Shown one piece after another: positions 48,545-55,867 of a stretch of DNA of 64,000 nt. A model generated the notes under the pieces. It was not told where the DNA came from. It was given only the letters and a program-made list of their open reading frames with translations, and did not search any database. A program made the position numbers and the translations under genes. The DNA lies in the NCBI RefSeq assembly GCF_003352065.1, contig NZ_CP025803.1:3774001-3838000 (forward strand). Direction: 5' to 3'. The DNA is from Sulfitobacter sp. SK011. Lineage in GTDB: Bacteria; Pseudomonadota; Alphaproteobacteria; Rhodobacterales; Rhodobacteraceae. How positions within the stretch are numbered: position 1 is the first letter of the stretch; each line of letters starts with the position of its first letter.

Positions 48545-49352
48545 CTGCCTGCTCAATTCGTCTCAGGCGGGCGCAAAACTCAGCGATCGCAGCGTCTGTT
48601 TCGGCTGGATATTCAAGGTGCGGGGCATGCCCACAGTTGTCCAGAACAAGCGCCTCGAACGGGGAATAGATCCGCGTGTCGATCTCATCAATCTGGGCCA
48701 ATGTGCCATAAGGGTCATCGCGACCCTGAACGGCCAGCACCGGGATGCGCCAATGGTCAATGACATCGGCCACATTCCAGTCGGCAAAGTCCGGGTCGGT
48801 CCACGCATCGTGCCAGCCCCAGAAAGCCACATCAGGGTTCGCGTGATATGGTGCCAATCGCGTCTTGAGGTCCCCGGTCTGATAGGATCTTCCGGCGGCC
48901 GCAATTGTGGCCAATCCGGTCGGTTCGGTAAAGAAATGGGGCGCGATCAGGATCAACCCCCGCACCCGCATGTCCGATACCGACCCCGCATAAATCGCAG
49001 CGATGGTGCCCCCATCGGAATGCCCGATCAGGATCGTCTGCTGCACACCCAGCCCATCCAGAACGTCCCCCAGAACCTCTGTCGCCTCGTGGGTCTGATA
49101 GTCAAGCGGGCGCGGTAAATCGGTAGTCTCAGATGCACCATACCCGCCCCGCGAATACGCCAGAACCCCAAGACCCGTTGCAGCAACCAAACGTTTCGGT
49201 AAGTCGCGCCAAAGGGCCACAGAACCCAATCCCTCGTGCAACAGCACCAGCGTCATCGCTTTGTCAGGTGGCGGCCCCCAGCAGGCATATTCGAGCGTTT
49301 TTCCACCCGCGATAAGCCGTGCGTCCGGCTCATTTGTCCAGGCGGCTGTCAT
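48528..49352 (-). CDS. Alpha/beta hydrolase of the box cluster
   Basis: A 274-residue serine hydrolase. LVLLHEGLGSVALWRDLPKRL (oxyanion loop HEGLG), nucleophile elbow GHSDGG with Ser at about 111, acid Asp in GRDDPYG and His in NCGHAPHLEYP. It could hydrolyse CoA thioesters, lactones or esters of the pathway. The ATG overlaps bclA by 4 nt. Confidence 0.88.
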   Translation of the reverse strand: MTAAWTNEPDARLIAGGKTLEYACWGPPPDKAMTLVLLHEGLGSVALWRDLPKRLVAATGLGVLAYSRGGYGASETTDLPRPLDYQTHEATEVLGDVLDGLGVQQTILIGHSDGGTIAAIYAGSVSDMRVRGLILIAPHFFTEPTGLATIAAAGRSYQTGDLKTRLAPYHANPDVAFWGWHDAWTDPDFADWNVADVIDHWRIPVLAVQGRDDPYGTLAQIDEIDTRIYSPFEALVLDNCGHAPHLEYPAETDAAIAEFCARLRRIEQADVRVG

Positions 49353-50890
49353 GTCCCGTCGCCCCTGAGCTTGAACCGTTGAATTTTACCTGTTGCCGTT
49401 TTGGGCAGGTCTTCGACCACTTCAATCCAGCGGGGATATTTCCATTTGCCGACCTGGGTTTGGACATGGGTCTTCAACTCGGCCAGCAATGCGTCATTTG
49501 CCTCACCCGATTGCAGCACCACAAAAGCTTTGGGTTTGTCCAACCCGTTTTCATCCTGAGCGGCGACAACTGCGGCTTCCAAGACCTGCGGATGGCTGAT
49601 CAACGCACCTTCGACTTCAAAAGGGGACACCCAGATGCCCGAGGCCTTGAACATGTCGTCTGTCCGCCCGCAATAGATATAGCGCCCGTCTGCGCGGCGT
49701 TCGTATTTGTCACCAGTCCGCGTCCAGACGCCCTCAAACGTGCCCCGGCTTTTGTCGCGCTGGTTCCAATAGCCTGTGGCGGCTGAATGGCCGTTGACCA
49801 GCAACTCACCCAATTCACCCACGCTCACCTCTGCGCCTGCCTCATCCACCAGCCGCAACTCATACCCCGGCACCGCAATGCCGGACGTGCCATAAACGAT
49901 GTTCCCCGGCGCGTTGCTTAGGAAAATATGCAGCATCTCAGTTGACCCGACGCCGTCCATGATGCCCACACCCATGTGCGCTTCCCACCGTTTGCCAATG
50001 TCTTCGGGCAAGGCTTCACCTGCGGAAATGCACGTCCGAAGTGGTACATCCGGGGCACCCGTTTTGTCCATCTGTGCCACCATGGCGGCATAAAGCGTCG
50101 GCACGCCGCAAAAGATCGTCGGCTGATGTGCCGTAATCGTATCGATCATGCCCTGCGGCGTCGGTCTGCCTGTGAACAGGACAGAGGTTGCACCGACAGA
50201 CAGGGGGAATGTCATTTCATTGCCCAGACCGTAGGCGAAAAAGAACTTGGCGGCGGACAAGACAAGGTCATCTTCGGCAATCTGCAAGACCTGTGCGCCA
50301 TAGGTATCAGCGGTGGCCCTGAGCGCGGAATGAACATGCGCCACACCTTTTGGTTGCCCGGTTGACCCAGACGAATAGAGCCAGAATGCCACCTCATCCG
50401 CACTGACCGGCAGCGTGGCTTGTGGCGCAGCACCTTTCAGAAAGTCCTCATACTCTGTGCCACCCGGCGCGGCATCGCCAATCACAACGACATGCCGCAG
50501 ATAAGGATTATCTGTCAGAGCGGGTGCAATCACCTCCCAGAGCGGGGCGGAAACAAATAGAATGGCGGCCCGGCAATCGCGGAGGATTACGTCATAAACC
50601 GGTGTGGCCAGCAAAGTGTTTAGCGGCACAGGAACCACCCCGGCCTTTATCGCGCCCCAGAACACCTGCGGAAATTCTATCTGATCAAGCACCAGCATCG
50701 CTGCGCGTTCCTCTGGTCGAATCCCGGCCTGGGTCAATGCGCCTGCAACCTTAGCGGCCCCTTGTGCCATTTCGCCATAGCTCAGCGACCGGCCTGTCTC
50801 AGCCTCCAGATACGCGCTTTTGTCGGCGCGCCCTTCGTCCAGATGACGGTCGACAAAATACGTTACCGCGTTGGCATTGACTGACAGCAT
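49349..50890 (-). CDS. bclA: Benzoate-CoA ligase
   Basis: A 513-residue ANL-family enzyme that activates benzoate to benzoyl-CoA, the entry step of the box route. AMP-binding loop LYSSGSTGQPKGVAHVH, FFAYGLGNEMTFPLSVGAT for the aryl pocket, RTGDKYERRADGRYIYCGRTDDMFKASGIWVSPFEVE hinge and catalytic Lys region LPKTATGKIQRFKLR at the C-terminus. ATG at 50888-50890 follows AAGGGGGA; an upstream open frame runs into foreign RHS DNA. It heads the leftward box operon. Confidence 0.93.
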   Translation of the reverse strand: MLSVNANAVTYFVDRHLDEGRADKSAYLEAETGRSLSYGEMAQGAAKVAGALTQAGIRPEERAAMLVLDQIEFPQVFWGAIKAGVVPVPLNTLLATPVYDVILRDCRAAILFVSAPLWEVIAPALTDNPYLRHVVVIGDAAPGGTEYEDFLKGAAPQATLPVSADEVAFWLYSSGSTGQPKGVAHVHSALRATADTYGAQVLQIAEDDLVLSAAKFFFAYGLGNEMTFPLSVGATSVLFTGRPTPQGMIDTITAHQPTIFCGVPTLYAAMVAQMDKTGAPDVPLRTCISAGEALPEDIGKRWEAHMGVGIMDGVGSTEMLHIFLSNAPGNIVYGTSGIAVPGYELRLVDEAGAEVSVGELGELLVNGHSAATGYWNQRDKSRGTFEGVWTRTGDKYERRADGRYIYCGRTDDMFKASGIWVSPFEVEGALISHPQVLEAAVVAAQDENGLDKPKAFVVLQSGEANDALLAELKTHVQTQVGKWKYPRWIEVVEDLPKTATGKIQRFKLRGDGT

Positions 50891-50966
50891 ATGGTCCCCC
50901 TTGAATAGGCATTCTGCATTATGCCGCGCAATTCGCAAATCATCTTTAGAGCGACGGCACTTTAAT

Positions 50967-51604
50967 CCAGAACTGGATGCGCGAGTACGATCCAGCGACC
51001 GGGCGGTATATTCAGGCGGACCCGTTGGGGCTGGTGGATGGGGCGAGTGTGTATGGATATGCAAGGCAGAACCCGGGTGTCTACTCCGACTTTACCGGAC
51101 AATGCCCATACTGCGTTGCTGTGGTCGGAGGGGCAGTGGCTGGTGTTGTTACGGGTTACACTATTGATCAAATTTGGGGCGATGGGTGTTACACTTGGGA
51201 CGAGGCCGCTACCGACGCTCTCCTAGGTGCTGCGTTCGGTAGCGTTGGAAAGGCAATTGGGTCAGTAGTAAAGGGTGGCGCGGGTGCTGTGGCTCCTGTC
51301 GTTTCTCGCGGGCCCGGCACTGCAATCCGCGAGGCCGCAGACGCGGCACGAGCAGCTGGGGCAAATAGCAGGGATGTTGGAAAAGCCGCGCATAACGCGT
51401 TAACAGACTGGATAAGAAAACATAAACTTGGCTGGAGAGCTGATCAGACCGTTCCTGGAAGTGGAAGTAGGGTCCGACCTGACGCAAGGTCTCCCAGAGG
51501 CAACAATATTGATCTTAAACCAAATACGCCGAGCGGCCGGAAGAGCAAAGCAGGAACTATATAAGAAATAGGGTTTAGGTAATACTAGGATAATTTACTA
51601 CTGA
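50967..51604 (+). pseudogene. RHS tip with PD-(D/E)xK-type nuclease toxin, broken
   Basis: Frame from ATG 50977 to TAA 51564. It opens with the end of an RHS core (QNWMREYDPATGRYIQAD, PLGLVDGASVYGYARQNPG), then a Gly/Ala-rich hydrophobic stretch (about 48-105) and a C-terminal region with RPDARSPRGNNIDLKPNTP, a plausible PD-DxK nuclease centre. The frame then diverts to SGRKSKAGTI and stops. One base over, the sequence reads GRAKQELYKK, TAG, GLGNTRIIYY and a TGA that overlaps the immunity ATG. Thus it looks disrupted by a frameshift and a nonsense codon. No start signal precedes it. Confidence 0.75.
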
Positions 51605-52251
51605 TGTCACTGTCTCCGCAAATTAGAAAGCACATATATCCCGTCCTTAAACGTCAGGGCTTTGAGAAGCATGGTGGCTTGTGGTGCCTGGAAAAAGACG
51701 AGGACTGGCTGATTGTCGTTGAAACGAGGTCGAGTAAGTTTGGCGATGAGGGGTTGTACTATTTTGAAGTTGATATTGGTTTCTTCTCTCGCGCAGTCGA
51801 TGATCTGATGGGATGGAGTAGGCAGGCCGGTTTCACTGAGGCCAACCCGATACCTGTGCCGAATGGGATACTTGGAGCTCATTTTGAATCCAGTCTATTT
51901 GATTTTGATGACAATGGCGTCTGGGTCGGTGTGCCTGACAACCTATTCCTACCTAAAGGTGCAGCTAGCGAGGCGGCATTTCTTGAGTTCGCTTTAAAGC
52001 TTGAGCGTGTTATTCCGAAAGCGTTCGAACGTTATGCAAGCTATGAAAGCCTGATTGAGTGTAAACGAAAAAGGATTGGGCGGTCATCCCAATCCAAACA
52101 AGCCAGCATGTATGCTGCAGCCGCCTGCATCAAACTGGAACGCTACGATGAGGCGCGCGAATTCCTCGAAGACGCCGTCCGACCCGGTTCCACACAATTT
52201 ATGAAAGATGTTGGCGCGCGGCTAAACAAGATAATTGACGCAGCCAGTTAG
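51604..52251 (+). CDS. DUF4304-like putative immunity protein
   Basis: A 215-residue cytoplasmic protein: IRKHIYPVLKRQGFEKHGGLWCLEKDEDWLIVVETRSSK follows the DUF4304 pattern, a family repeatedly found beside polymorphic toxins; a helical C-terminus (KQASMYAAAACIKLERYDEAREFLEDA) looks TPR-like. Its ATG overlaps the ancestral toxin stop (TGATG), the expected toxin-immunity coupling. It is intact although the toxin is broken. Composition is more AT-rich than the host genes. Confidence 0.72.
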   Translation: MSLSPQIRKHIYPVLKRQGFEKHGGLWCLEKDEDWLIVVETRSSKFGDEGLYYFEVDIGFFSRAVDDLMGWSRQAGFTEANPIPVPNGILGAHFESSLFDFDDNGVWVGVPDNLFLPKGAASEAAFLEFALKLERVIPKAFERYASYESLIECKRKRIGRSSQSKQASMYAAAACIKLERYDEAREFLEDAVRPGSTQFMKDVGARLNKIIDAAS

Positions 52252-52293
52252 TTGCAACACCACACGTTTTAGATGGTGATCCTCTCCAAGTAG

Positions 52294-53178
52294 TGCGCCA
52301 ATGGCAACCAGATTGCCGAATATCTGTTTGATCCGGCCACCAGCACCTCCACCCTGCTGCGCGAATATATCTGGATGGATGGTGTCGCTGTCGCGGTGAT
52401 CGAGGGCGGGCAGATGTATTTTATCCGCACCGACCACATCGGGCGGCCCGTCTTTGCCACCGACAGCACCGGCGCGAAGGTGTGGGAGGCGATGTATCTG
52501 CCCTTCGGCGGTGTGCAAGTATCGACAGGTCCAAACATCGAGCTGCGCTTTCCGGGTCAGTGGTTCCAGTCTGAGAGCGGTTTGCACCAGAACTGGATGC
52601 GCGAGTACGATCCGACCACCGGGAGGTATATTCAGGCCGATCCGCTGGGACTGGTGGAAGGGGCGTCTGTGTATGGGTACGTGTTGCAGAACCCGGGGCG
52701 GTAAGTTGATCCGAGGGGAGAACAGAGTGTTTCCTTCAATGGCACAACACTGAGTACTTTTGACGGCAGTGGCCGTCCAGTCGCAAGTTATCCTGCTGTT
52801 TCCGGAAAATCCCAGTCGTGCCAATGCTCTGATGACATGAACATAGAGGATTATGGACCAACACCCGAGGGTATGTATACGGTTGATCCGAGTGCGATCA
52901 ATCGGTGGAGTTTTCTCAAGGGCTTGCCTAAAATCGGCGGCTGGGGATCACGAATCGCGTGGGGAAATCAAAGAACGCATCTTGTGCCATTTCGGCATAA
53001 CGCAGAAGGTCGCACTCAAATGTACATACATGGTGGCCGCTATCCCGGTTCTAAGGGCTGTATTGACTTGACTAATAGTAACGATGCATTCCACGAGTGG
53101 TTGGAGCGGCAAACCCGTCCGGTTCCGGTTATTGTCGACTATGGCGACAATAATTCATTTGGGCTGGGCCGATTTTGA
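52294..53178 (+). pseudogene. RHS core plus Tlde1/DUF2778-type toxin, interrupted by one TAA
   Basis: One frame of 295 codons with a single in-frame stop (52702-52704). Before it: RHS core (NGNQIAEYLFDPATST, TDHIGRPVFATDSTGAKVW, LRFPGQWFQSESGLHQNWM, DPLGLVEGASVYGYVLQNPG). After it: VDPRGEQ, then FNGTTLSTFDGSGRPVASYP, YGPTPEGMYTV, and YIHGGRYPGSKGCIDLT with the His and Cys expected of Tlde1/DUF2778 enzymes, which attack tetrapeptide stems of peptidoglycan. The stop replaces the Tyr of the usual NPGRY-DP motif. An internal ATG (52837) would lose the first part of the toxin domain. Confidence 0.8.
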
Positions 53179-53606
53179 TGGGACGCTACCGGAACTCGCG
53201 ATTCTGGATTTTTCTCGCATGCGTTTTTGCAGCTAGTGAAGGTAATGGGGCAGGAAGCGGCTACCCCGAATTCAATCACCGTCTCGAGAGAAGTTTTTAT
53301 TCTAGAGGACTCGAGAGAGCCGCTGGGGATTACATACTGACTGTTCTGCGGCACGGAATTTTTGGAAAAACTTATCAACTAAATATAGGCGCTAGCTACT
53401 ATGATGAAGTTACGGAACTAAGAGAAAAGTCGCTAGGCACTATCCCACTCACATGTTCCAAATCTTCGGCAACTAATATCGATGAATATAGGGTAAGGAG
53501 TTTTCCAGAGAGAAACCAAATAATACTCTTCATTCAATTTCCTGAACACACCTCGGAGCAGTTTTTGGTATCTTGTATTGGGATGTTAGAGACAAAGCAG
53601 CCTTAA
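53178..53606 (+). CDS. Secreted putative immunity protein for the Tlde1-type toxin
   Basis: A 142-residue protein with a signal peptide (GRYRNSRFWIFLACVFAASEG), so it would be in the periplasm, where a peptidoglycan-acting toxin would need to be neutralised. The mature part is polar, with two Cys (LTCSKSS and VSCIGM). I recognise no family name. The ATG overlaps the toxin TGA by 1 nt (TGATG). Notable AT-rich composition. The reading frame is intact. Confidence 0.7.
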   Translation: MGRYRNSRFWIFLACVFAASEGNGAGSGYPEFNHRLERSFYSRGLERAAGDYILTVLRHGIFGKTYQLNIGASYYDEVTELREKSLGTIPLTCSKSSATNIDEYRVRSFPERNQIILFIQFPEHTSEQFLVSCIGMLETKQP

Positions 53607-53670
53607 TAGGACCAAAGACCTGATTACCGTGGCGCAAGTGGTGTAGACCAACAACGCCTGCGATCCGTAG

Positions 53671-54063
53671 GTCAACTGCAGCCTGACGCAGACGGGGTAT
53701 CGCATCCATGTGATCCACGACAAGGATGGCAACCGGTTGGCGGAGTACCAGATCGACAACACGACTGGTGCCTCGACCTTGCTGCAGGAATACATTTGGC
53801 ATGACGGTGTGCCTGTGGCGGTGGTCGATGGCCAGACCAACGATGTCTACCTCGTGCGCACTCATCACATTGGGCGGCCCGTATTTGCGACCGATTCCTC
53901 CGGCGTGAAGGTTTGGGAGGCGACATATCTGCCCTTCAGCGGCGTGCATGTCTCGACCGGCGGACCGATAGAACTGCGCTTCCCCCCTCTCACACATGCA
54001 AGCATGTGCTGCCGGGCAGCGGGACCAGTGGTTCCAGTCAGAGAGCGGCTTGCACCAGAACTG
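53671..54063 (+). pseudogene. Third RHS core fragment, no tip
   Basis: Frame opens after TAG at 53668 and reads TQTGYRIHVIHDKDGNRL, EYQIDNTTGASTLLQEYIWH, THHIGRPVFATDSSGVKVW, LPFSGVHVSTGGPIELRFP. At 53982 the match to the other cores is broken by about 40 nt containing two palindromes; the core then resumes in another frame as GQRDQWFQSESGLHQN and ends at 54063. It overlaps the last codons of the acyl-CoA ligase gene on the other strand. No start codon context or toxin remains. Confidence 0.8.
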
Positions 54064-55867
54064 AGATGCGCGCGGGCGTCGTCGGATCGTAAAGCATTTC
54101 AATCAGATCTGCCCGGCGTTCCAACAGCTTCGCAAAGTTAATATTGCCTTTCGCTGTCGCTTCGCCGTCAGCCATTGACGGGGGATCAGCCAAGATCAAG
54201 GCGCAAGTTATCCGCGTTGCACTGCCCGTCGCTTTTGCTGCAAGGGTGGTCAGGCGCTCTGCAAGCTCTGCGTTCAATGCGTCACAGTGCATCACGCCAG
54301 CCGTTTCTGCCGCGTCCCAGCCCTGCGCTGCGATTGCGGCCCGGTTTGGCACAATCAACGCGCCCAGCGCCGCGCGTCCCTGCCCGGTGATCACTACATC
54401 CTGCGCAAAGGGGGCAAGCACCGCCAACAACGCCAGCCGCAGATTGGCGGCCTGCACCCAGGTGCCTGTCGCCAGTTTAAAATCCTCATCAAGCCGCCCG
54501 TCAAAATGCAGGCCCTTGTTGACGTCATCAGCATCAACAAAGCGCATTGCGTCACCCGTCCTAAAAAAACCTTCATCATCAAAAGCTTTTTGCGTCCTGG
54601 CCGCGTCGTGCAAATATCCGGGCGTGACGTTGGCTCCCTTCACGCGCACTTCGCAGCGTCCTTGCGCGTCCGGCACCAGTTTGAGCGTCACACCGGGCAT
54701 CGGCACGCCCACAATCCCGGCCCCTTTTGCATCGGCGTGGTTGATCAGCGCCGCAGGTGCGGTTTCGGTCAGGCCCCATGACGTGGTGATCAACGGCAAC
54801 TGCCCGCAGGTGTCCAGTGCCAGCCGTTCAAGCGCCGCCCAGGTGTCCTGAGGCAATGATGCGCCAGCATAAAAAATCATATCAAGATCGGCAAAGTATG
54901 TGTCGCGCAATGCCTTATCACGCTCCAATGCTGTGACCAGCTGCGCAAAACCGACAGGCACATTAAAGCTGATCGTGGCCGATTTTTGGCCAAGATTTTC
55001 AAGCGTCAGGTCGAACAAGCCCGGCGCAGGTTTTCCAGCGTCGATATAAAGGCTGCCGCCGTTGGCCAGCATCAGGTTGAAATTATGCGATCCACCAAAG
55101 ACATGGTTCCACGGCAACCAATCCACAATGCAGGGCGGGCGTGTTTGAACAAAGGGCAGACAGGCGGCGATCTGGGCCTGATTGGCCGTCATCATCCCCA
55201 TCGTCGTCAACACCCCCTTGGGGTCCGAGGTTGAACCGGACGTCAGCAGGATTTTGGCCAGCGTATCGGAAGTGATCGCCTGAAATGCCGAAGCAATATC
55301 GGCGCTGATGGGGCGCAGAAACTGCGCAAAATCCGTTGCACCATTGTCGCCCGGTGCCGAACTCAGCACTTCAACCCCGTCGAAGACATTCAACGCCAAT
55401 GCGCCCGCGTATTGTGCGGCATCCTCGGCAAACACCATCCCCGGTCGGACCAGTCTCGCGGCATATTCCAACCGTGGGTGCGCCGCAGGGATCAAGCTGT
55501 ATTGTTCGGCCACCGGCACGGTGGAAATGCCCACATACTGCGCTGCAAGGGTCAGCAACCCGTGATCGATGCCATTTCCCGACAAGATCATGATGGGCCG
55601 ATCAGGCCCCAAATCGCGCGAGATAAGATGCCCCGCAATCGCTTGGACCTGCGCAAGCGCCTCAGCGTATCGGACCTCGCGCCAGCCTTTGCCAGACCGT
55701 TCTGCAAGAAACACCCGGTCCGGGGCGGTGGTTGCCCAATAGTGTAACCAGTCGCCACTGCACCGCGCAACCGGCCCCATTGCATAGGCAGACCGCAGCA
55801 GGATCGTGCCATCAGCCCGGTCTTCGCGCAGCACGTTATGTGGTTTCAGGTTGAGATGTGCTGTCAT
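54038..55867 (-). CDS. Feruloyl-CoA-synthetase-like acyl-CoA ligase
   Basis: A 609-residue ANL-family ligase. The AMP loop is LLTSGSTSDPKGVLTTMG, followed by VDWLPWNHVFGGSHNFNLML and SWGLTETAPAALI; the hinge GRLDEDFKLATGTWVQAANLR and the C-terminal AKGNINFAKLLERRADLIEMLY are typical of FerA-type enzymes that activate hydroxycinnamates. The final residues VQAAL are antisense to RHS sequence, so the natural C-terminus has been altered by the array. It ends the operon coming from the TRAP genes. Confidence 0.85.
   Translation of the reverse strand: MTAHLNLKPHNVLREDRADGTILLRSAYAMGPVARCSGDWLHYWATTAPDRVFLAERSGKGWREVRYAEALAQVQAIAGHLISRDLGPDRPIMILSGNGIDHGLLTLAAQYVGISTVPVAEQYSLIPAAHPRLEYAARLVRPGMVFAEDAAQYAGALALNVFDGVEVLSSAPGDNGATDFAQFLRPISADIASAFQAITSDTLAKILLTSGSTSDPKGVLTTMGMMTANQAQIAACLPFVQTRPPCIVDWLPWNHVFGGSHNFNLMLANGGSLYIDAGKPAPGLFDLTLENLGQKSATISFNVPVGFAQLVTALERDKALRDTYFADLDMIFYAGASLPQDTWAALERLALDTCGQLPLITTSWGLTETAPAALINHADAKGAGIVGVPMPGVTLKLVPDAQGRCEVRVKGANVTPGYLHDAARTQKAFDDEGFFRTGDAMRFVDADDVNKGLHFDGRLDEDFKLATGTWVQAANLRLALLAVLAPFAQDVVITGQGRAALGALIVPNRAAIAAQGWDAAETAGVMHCDALNAELAERLTTLAAKATGSATRITCALILADPPSMADGEATAKGNINFAKLLERRADLIEMLYDPTTPARISVLVQAAL

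What the first reader, a model, noticed from the sequence alone, without database searches (positions are those of the whole stretch)
50967..54063. Orphan RHS tip array bounded by one 9-bp core sequence, inserted between a ligase gene and bclA
Both ends of the foreign segment are CCAGAACTG, at the identical point of the RHS core (the codons for QNW in GLHQNWMREYDP). The left end starts there and runs into cassette 1; the right end is a core that stops there. Closing the ends would restore a continuous core, so the segment looks like a circle opened at this site. The flanking acs 3' end also shares GATGCGCG beyond the 9-mer, so homology-driven insertion is possible. Removing the array gives an acs that ends with SVLD and TAA, followed 71 nt later by bclA. 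This would be a way for RHS tips to move as circular, permuted units without a transposase.
Basis: partly seen in the sequence, partly recalled or inferred. Interest (0 to 1): 0.85.

Follow-up and report, generated by a model that had tools for sequence, protein, structure and literature searches.

The report
RHS toxin-tip array inserted inside-out
A stranded pair of bacterial toxin-and-immunity cassettes sits between two aromatic-acid genes as if a DNA circle had been cut open in the middle of its repeated core sequence and pasted in at a short chance match, a likely fossil of a proposed way in which such cassettes move.

Summary
CCAGAACTG occurs three times in 64 kb (0.37 expected): at both ends of a 3.1-kb RHS segment and in its middle core. 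The left end is a core starting, and the right end a core stopping, at the same point. In 17 of 17 same-genus acs orthologs examined, bclA follows 57-92 nt downstream without an insert. Joining the window flanks over one 9-mer gives an acs ending RISVLD-stop, 71 nt before bclA, as in relatives. So the segment was inserted precisely, opened inside its own core, at 9 bp of native acs sequence (17 of 18 columns with one gap). The genome shows no other RHS core and no VipB. Best reading: a two-cassette circle integrated by one crossover at short homology; a linear donor or template switching would leave the same product. Jackson et al. 2009 already proposed circles entering rhs cores; the ectopic site and readable opening point are the new part. 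Generality is not supported: of 12 lone arrays surveyed, this one and L047 (Yoonia) have matching ends (chance 0.07), and start and end points are uncorrelated. The two opening points differ, so a fixed site is unlikely.

The parts
49349..50890 (-). bclA, benzoate-CoA ligase family; left neighbour, intact
   Evidence: TIGR02262 728 bits against cut-off 375; PF00501/PF13193
50891..50966 (-). acs-bclA intergenic remnant with the ancestral acs stop (TAA at 50962-50964) and the bclA upstream region
   Evidence: sequence, alignment with relatives
50967..50975 (+). Left copy of the 9-mer CCAGAACTG (crossover point)
50967..51118 (+). Right half of RHS core 1 (HMM 453-604 of 610; long HMM from 2397), open in frame into tip 1
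51090..51564 (+). Tip 1: C-terminal toxin region by position; no toxin family in Pfam or NCBIfam; intactness not tested; its start is my estimate
51604..52251 (+). Putative immunity gene 1 (215 aa, open ORF); weak DUF4304 and TPR-like matches below cut-off; no match in the 393 other family genomes searched
52273..52739 (+). Core 2, internal and continuous across the 9-mer; reading frame stopped at 52702-52704 just before tip 2
52587..52595 (+). Internal 9-mer CCAGAACTG in core 2
52705..53178 (+). Tip 2: YkuD / Tlde1-like L,D-transpeptidase domain (ORF from 52837); 59% aa match in Pseudaestuariivita rosea
   Evidence: PF03734 2.8e-5, over cut-off; PF10908 7.2e-5, under cut-off
53175..53606 (+). 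Putative immunity gene 2 (143 aa, open ORF); 25% aa match at the same place in P. rosea
53619..54063 (+). Left half of RHS core 3, ending at the 9-mer
53985..54025 (+). Stretch holding a 37-bp insertion with a short hairpin inside core 3
54055..54063 (+). Right copy of the 9-mer CCAGAACTG; one of the two outer copies corresponds to native acs codons
54038..55867 (-). acs, acyl-CoA synthetase; native part 54064-55867; its last codons now run into core 3
   Evidence: PF00501; best NCBIfam NF009232, 640 bits against cut-off 777

Best explanation
The 3.1-kb segment is a foreign orphan RHS array of two tip-immunity cassettes. It entered the chromosome once, at the 3' end of acs, as a unit already opened inside its repeated core. 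The most economical route: recombination between two cores in a donor rhs locus released a circle (core-tip1-imm1-core-tip2-imm2). In the recipient, which shows no other rhs core, the circle integrated by one reciprocal crossover at CCAGAACTG, where acs by chance matches the core in 17 of 18 columns. A single crossover of a circle leaves the crossover sequence at both ends, deletes nothing and needs no transposase. Shown: the anatomy, the empty site in relatives, precision with no loss, one 9-mer copy corresponding to native acs codons, no other RHS core and no VipB found in the genome. Inferred: the circle, its origin, how it entered, and the use of the weak homology. The array is probably not deliverable here; the two immunity ORFs are open and could still act, untested.
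For: Ends at one core point. Empty site in 17 of 17 same-genus acs orthologs (at least 63% aa identity), bclA 57-92 nt on; the joined flanks show at the junction only gaps shared with relatives and give SVLD-stop plus 71 nt, against xxxH-stop plus 73-75 nt in 9 of the 17. Site homology: Smith-Waterman score 15 against a maximum of 11 in 696 random 40-nt tiles. Foreign: GC 0.526 against 0.591 (acs) and 0.578 (bclA); RHS core in 4 of 62 genus genomes including this one; no other core in the genome; no VipB. Tip2-imm2-half-core occurs in the same order at the end of an array behind a full-length rhs in Pseudaestuariivita rosea. Precedent for the model: PMC2935791, abstract and passages.
Against: No free circle was seen: of 1175 plasmid records with a match only one reaches 60% identity, a 220-kb plasmid; 12 phage records match, all below 60%, some of them short and unannotated and not examined; no viral contig was confirmed. 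A blastn scan of the 64-kb empty-site model finds 9 other alignments with core 2 that score at least as high as the site (4 higher, 5 equal), so homology alone does not single it out. Cores 2 and 3 are only 74-78% identical and cores 1 and 2 about 85%, so recent homologous excision between them is unlikely. Of 11 other lone arrays surveyed only one (L047) has coinciding ends. No donor with the same two cassettes in this order was found among the fetched loci.
Confidence: 0.6

Rival explanations
1. A linear donor fragment (transformation or a gene transfer agent) carrying at least three cores recombined at both ends, each time at the same 9-mer of a core and the same chromosomal 9-mer.
For: Same final junctions. 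The segment is 3.1 kb, within the size of a gene-transfer-agent packet (recalled). A mechanism akin to homology-facilitated illegitimate recombination was proposed for effector arrays (PMC5361080, passages).
Against: Needs two short-homology events at one 9-mer instead of one.
Confidence: 0.2
2. Replicative template switching: a fork left the chromosome at the 9-mer, copied about 3.1 kb of donor array and returned at the same 9-mer.
For: Short homology at the switch point, no loss, no duplication beyond the 9-mer.
Against: Needs two switches and donor DNA in the cell; nothing here separates it from the circle model.
Confidence: 0.1
3. A site-specific recombinase uses CCAGAACTG in the core as an attachment site.
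For: An internal orphan core of L060 (Jannaschia pohangensis) also starts at HMM 2397.
Against: L047 opens at about 2082. Of 76 orphan-core starts copied by hand, 2 lie in 2388-2406. No recombinase among the array ORFs scanned.
Confidence: 0.04
4. Remains of a full rhs locus once resident here, with its 5' part and its 3' end lost separately.
For: Many arrays end in tip-less half-cores and orphan cores start at many points.
Against: 0 of 17 relatives have any insert here, and the flanks join without loss at one 9-mer. Two independent deletions would have to meet at the same core base and restore acs.
Confidence: 0.03

Closest known systems
Dissociated rhs tips and C-terminal displacement by circular intermediates (Jackson et al. 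2009, PMC2935791; abstract and passages seen)
   Same: Tip-plus-core fragments in strings, variable core lengths, a proposed episomal circle and a single crossover.
   Different: There the circle is proposed to enter an rhs core by very high identity. Here the insert is in a non-rhs gene at 9 bp (17 of 18 columns), is opened inside its core, and no full-length rhs was found in the genome.
Orphan rhs-CT/rhsI modules (Koskiniemi et al. 2014, PMC3967940; abstract and passages seen)
   Same: Core fragment, toxin tip and immunity gene; orphans usually lack translation initiation signals.
   Different: Those lie behind a main rhs gene and there is evidence that they fuse to it; this array has no main gene to join.
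T6SS effector-immunity displacement, putatively by homology-facilitated illegitimate recombination (Kirchberger et al. 2017, PMC5361080; passages seen)
   Same: Limited homology is proposed to assist integration of effector-immunity modules.
   Different: There a conserved stretch anchors one side within an effector cluster; here both junctions share one 9-mer in an unrelated gene.

Membership tests
Orphan RHS tip-immunity array | RHS-associated core | tested here: met
   TIGR03696 77.9 and 48.2 bits, cut-off 32.5; PF03527 29.3 bits, cut-off 27.9
Orphan RHS tip-immunity array | C-terminal toxin domain after the core | tested here: inconclusive
   Tip 2 YkuD/Tlde1-like; tip 1 matches no toxin family
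Orphan RHS tip-immunity array | Cognate immunity gene directly after the tip | tested here: inconclusive
   Open ORFs in the expected places; weak or no family match; tip2-imm2 order kept in P. rosea
Orphan RHS tip-immunity array | Lies downstream of a full-length rhs gene | tested here: not met
   No other core found in the genome
Jackson circle integration | Ends of the insert close to one continuous core | tested here: met
Jackson circle integration | Target is an rhs core of the same clade with high identity | tested here: not met
   Target is acs with 17 of 18 columns
Jackson circle integration | Free circular form exists | not testable with these tools
   No reads held; no close small episome
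Transposon or integron cassette | Transposase or integrase gene, terminal inverted repeats or attC | tested here: not met
   None among the array ORFs scanned; no inverted repeat of 14 nt or more pairs the two ends; attC not searched

The most novel reading that the evidence does not exclude
RHS tip-immunity cassettes exist as free circles that can lodge anywhere a core finds 9-17 bp of match, so immunity genes and tips spread outside rhs loci without any recombinase of their own. The window (and possibly L047) are opened-circle fossils that record the exact crossover.
Probability: 0.35. Interest if true: 0.7.

Novelty: new variant of a known kind. Interest (0 to 1): 0.45.

Why it matters
The 2009 model of RHS diversification rests on small circles; none of the passages that I read reports seeing one. 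An insert outside any rhs locus, opened inside its core at a readable base, is the kind of trace that model would leave when a circle misses its normal target. It gives a concrete signature (one k-mer of the core at both ends, an empty site in relatives) that can be searched for in large genome sets.

Tried and rejected
Fixed attachment site at CCAGAACTG: unlikely, because L047 opens elsewhere and orphan-core starts are spread. Target-site duplication by a transposase: rejected, because the 9-mer belongs to the core itself (it is inside core 2) and to native acs codons.

General law of permuted arrays: a survey of 12 lone arrays whose right end is a tip-less half-core (window, L047, L065, L070, L076, L080, L082, L083, L095, L182, L185, L186) gave right end minus left start of 8, 0, 321, 73, 409, 136, 232, 105, 99, -70, -76, -110; 9 of 12 are zero or positive, as random pairing gives (0.50); Spearman 0.03; two or more within 9 nt in 7% of random pairings. 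I chose the 12 and typed the values by hand. L066 and L187 were dropped because an end lies near a contig end. L186 has only about 1.1 kb of contig on its upstream side and the right end of L182 lies 305 nt from a contig end, so these two are weak. The second hit of L182 was found only by the HMM. For L076 the left start differs by 138; I used. Arrays that end in a tip, and single cores, were not in the survey.

Donor search by immunity gene 1: 1 of 394 family genomes, the window's own. Core in plasmids: 1175 records, one at 60-80% identity, the rest below 60%, 60 rows listed. Phages: 12 records, all below 60%, including short unannotated ones, not examined. Viral contigs: 2 pattern matches, 0 confirmed. 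Solved structures for tip 2 and immunity 1: none. The hairpin stretch in core 3 folds no better than shuffles (z 0.22; 105 of 200 fold at least as well). Paper searches: listings only. PMC4927057: passages only; its circular intermediates concern a genomic island. No structure prediction was run.

Full report
What is there. The window lies in a single-contig 4.19-Mb genome. The family is very likely Rhodobacteraceae: contigs of its family fetched have the same lengths as named records of that group (1,042,199 bases, Candidatus Rhodobacter lobularis; 62,704 bases, Gemmobacter tilapiae). On the + strand, between bclA (49349-50890, -) and acs (native part 54064-55867, -), lies a 3.1-kb RHS segment: half-core 1, tip 1, immunity 1, core 2, tip 2, immunity 2, half-core 3. 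Both outer ends are at CCAGAACTG; the third copy is inside core 2. On a DNA model of 62 cores from Rhodobacterales records the left end begins, and the right end stops, at the same place (long model: start 2397, 9-mer 2397-2405).

The empty site. Of 62 same-genus genomes, 18 including this one carry acs at E below 1e-250. All 17 relatives were examined and 17 of 17 have bclA 57-92 nt after the acs stop. Five more distant acs-like genes (56-60% identity) have no bclA in the fetched downstream stretch of about 1.5 kb. Nine of the 17 end in xxxH-stop with bclA 73-75 nt on. Joining the window flanks over a single 9-mer gives RISVLD-stop and a 71-nt gap, and the joined sequence has at the junction only gaps that relatives share. 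One copy of the 9-mer therefore corresponds to native acs codons and nothing was lost; acs exchanged its last codon for five others.

The homology at the site. Beyond the 9-mer, acs matches the core for GATGCGCG after a one-base gap: 17 of 18 columns. By Smith-Waterman this site scores 15 against core 2, while 696 random 40-nt tiles of the window reach at most 11. Against this, a blastn-short scan of the whole 64-kb empty-site model finds four alignments with a higher score and five others with an equal score. Sites of this quality are therefore not rare genome-wide; the weight of the evidence is that the junction itself sits on one.

Why an insertion of a permuted unit. In this family a full-length rhs (about 1260-1600 aa before the HQNW motif) is often followed by orphan cores with tips. 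The orphan cores start at many different points, and arrays often end in a tip-less half-core. Each end of the window array is thus ordinary alone. Their coincidence at one base, at a site where the chromosome carries the same 9-mer, is not. A circle opened by one crossover explains both ends, the lack of loss and the lack of a recombinase with one event. A linear donor with repeated cores, or template switching, needs two events but leaves the same sequence, so the circle is inferred and not shown.

Foreign and stranded. No other RHS core and no VipB (the control rang in 1 of 14 genomes, E. coli) were found in this genome. RHS cores occur in 4 of 62 genomes of the genus including this one, and this core type in 19 of 394 genomes of the family including this one. 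Core 2 has a stop just before tip 2, and half-core 3 carries a 37-bp frame-disrupting insertion. Both immunity ORFs are open. Tip 2 resembles YkuD/Tlde1 L,D-transpeptidase effectors. Its only match among the fetched loci, in Pseudaestuariivita rosea, has the same order tip-immunity-half-core at the end of an array behind a full-length rhs.

Is it general? I compared the outer ends of 12 lone arrays. Only the window and L047 (Yoonia sp. F2084L) have ends that meet. L047 opens near position 2082, about 300 nt from the window's point; its left flank is a transposase fragment that does not visibly resume on the right, so its empty site is unproven. Random pairing gives two or more such cases in 7% and the points are uncorrelated. 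So generality is not supported, and a fixed attachment site is unlikely. Two of the 12 (L182, L186) lie close to contig ends and are weak.

What is known. Jackson et al. 2009 (PMC2935791; abstract and passages read) proposed that tips move as small circles produced by recombination between cores and integrated by one crossover into an rhs core, and left open how such circles arise. Koskiniemi et al. 2014 (PMC3967940; abstract and passages) gave evidence for fusion of an orphan tip with a main rhs gene. Kirchberger et al. 2017 (PMC5361080; passages) proposed a mechanism akin to homology-facilitated illegitimate recombination for effector arrays. The heads of the listings that I saw (25 of 330 papers, 25 of 126, 4 of 4, 12 of 527, 10 of 95,707, 2 of 2) name no rhs array inserted outside an rhs locus and opened inside its core. 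These searches cover only open-licence papers and were seen mostly as titles and abstract starts.

Verdict. A well-supported single insertion of a permuted RHS array at short homology; a probable fossil of the proposed circle at an ectopic site; not shown to be a common process.

Noticed in passing
L047 7892-9271: Yoonia sp. F2084L lone one-cassette array whose two outer core ends meet within about 2 nt (by eye) near long-HMM position 2082; left flank is an IS3-type (rve_3) transposase fragment, right flank an iron alcohol dehydrogenase.
   Followed up: partly
L060 9536: An internal orphan core of Jannaschia pohangensis also begins at CCAGAACTG (HMM 2397).
   Followed up: partly
tip-less half-cores in L041-L095, L182-L192 and the window: By hand tally, 10 of 26 half-cores that I took as tip-less end within 2405-2452 (QNWMRDYDPTTGRY region), one of them (L089) at a contig end; no strong shared downstream sequence. 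L050 (copy of L041) and cores ending at 2465-2519 in L043, L061, L068, L078, L081 and L085 were left out. No significance test made.
   Followed up: partly
52606-52619 and 54078-54091: A 14-nt, 93% inverted match between the core (YDPTT) and the acs end (also YDPTT), next to the insertion point; probably chance.
   Followed up: no
53985-54025: 37-bp insertion with a short perfect hairpin in half-core 3; the only other match in the genome has 3 mismatches over 21 nt.
   Followed up: yes
50891-50966 and acs-bclA gaps of L008-L021, L145-L147: Conserved TGCA / TGCACAAT-like boxes before bclA in relatives, partly kept on the bclA side of the insertion; perhaps a BoxR/BzdR-type operator (recalled, not tested).
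   Followed up: no
NC_023146.1 43551-43877: A Leisingera methylohalidivorans 220-kb plasmid carries the same RHS core at 78% aa identity, so this core family is plasmid-borne in at least one relative.
   Followed up: no
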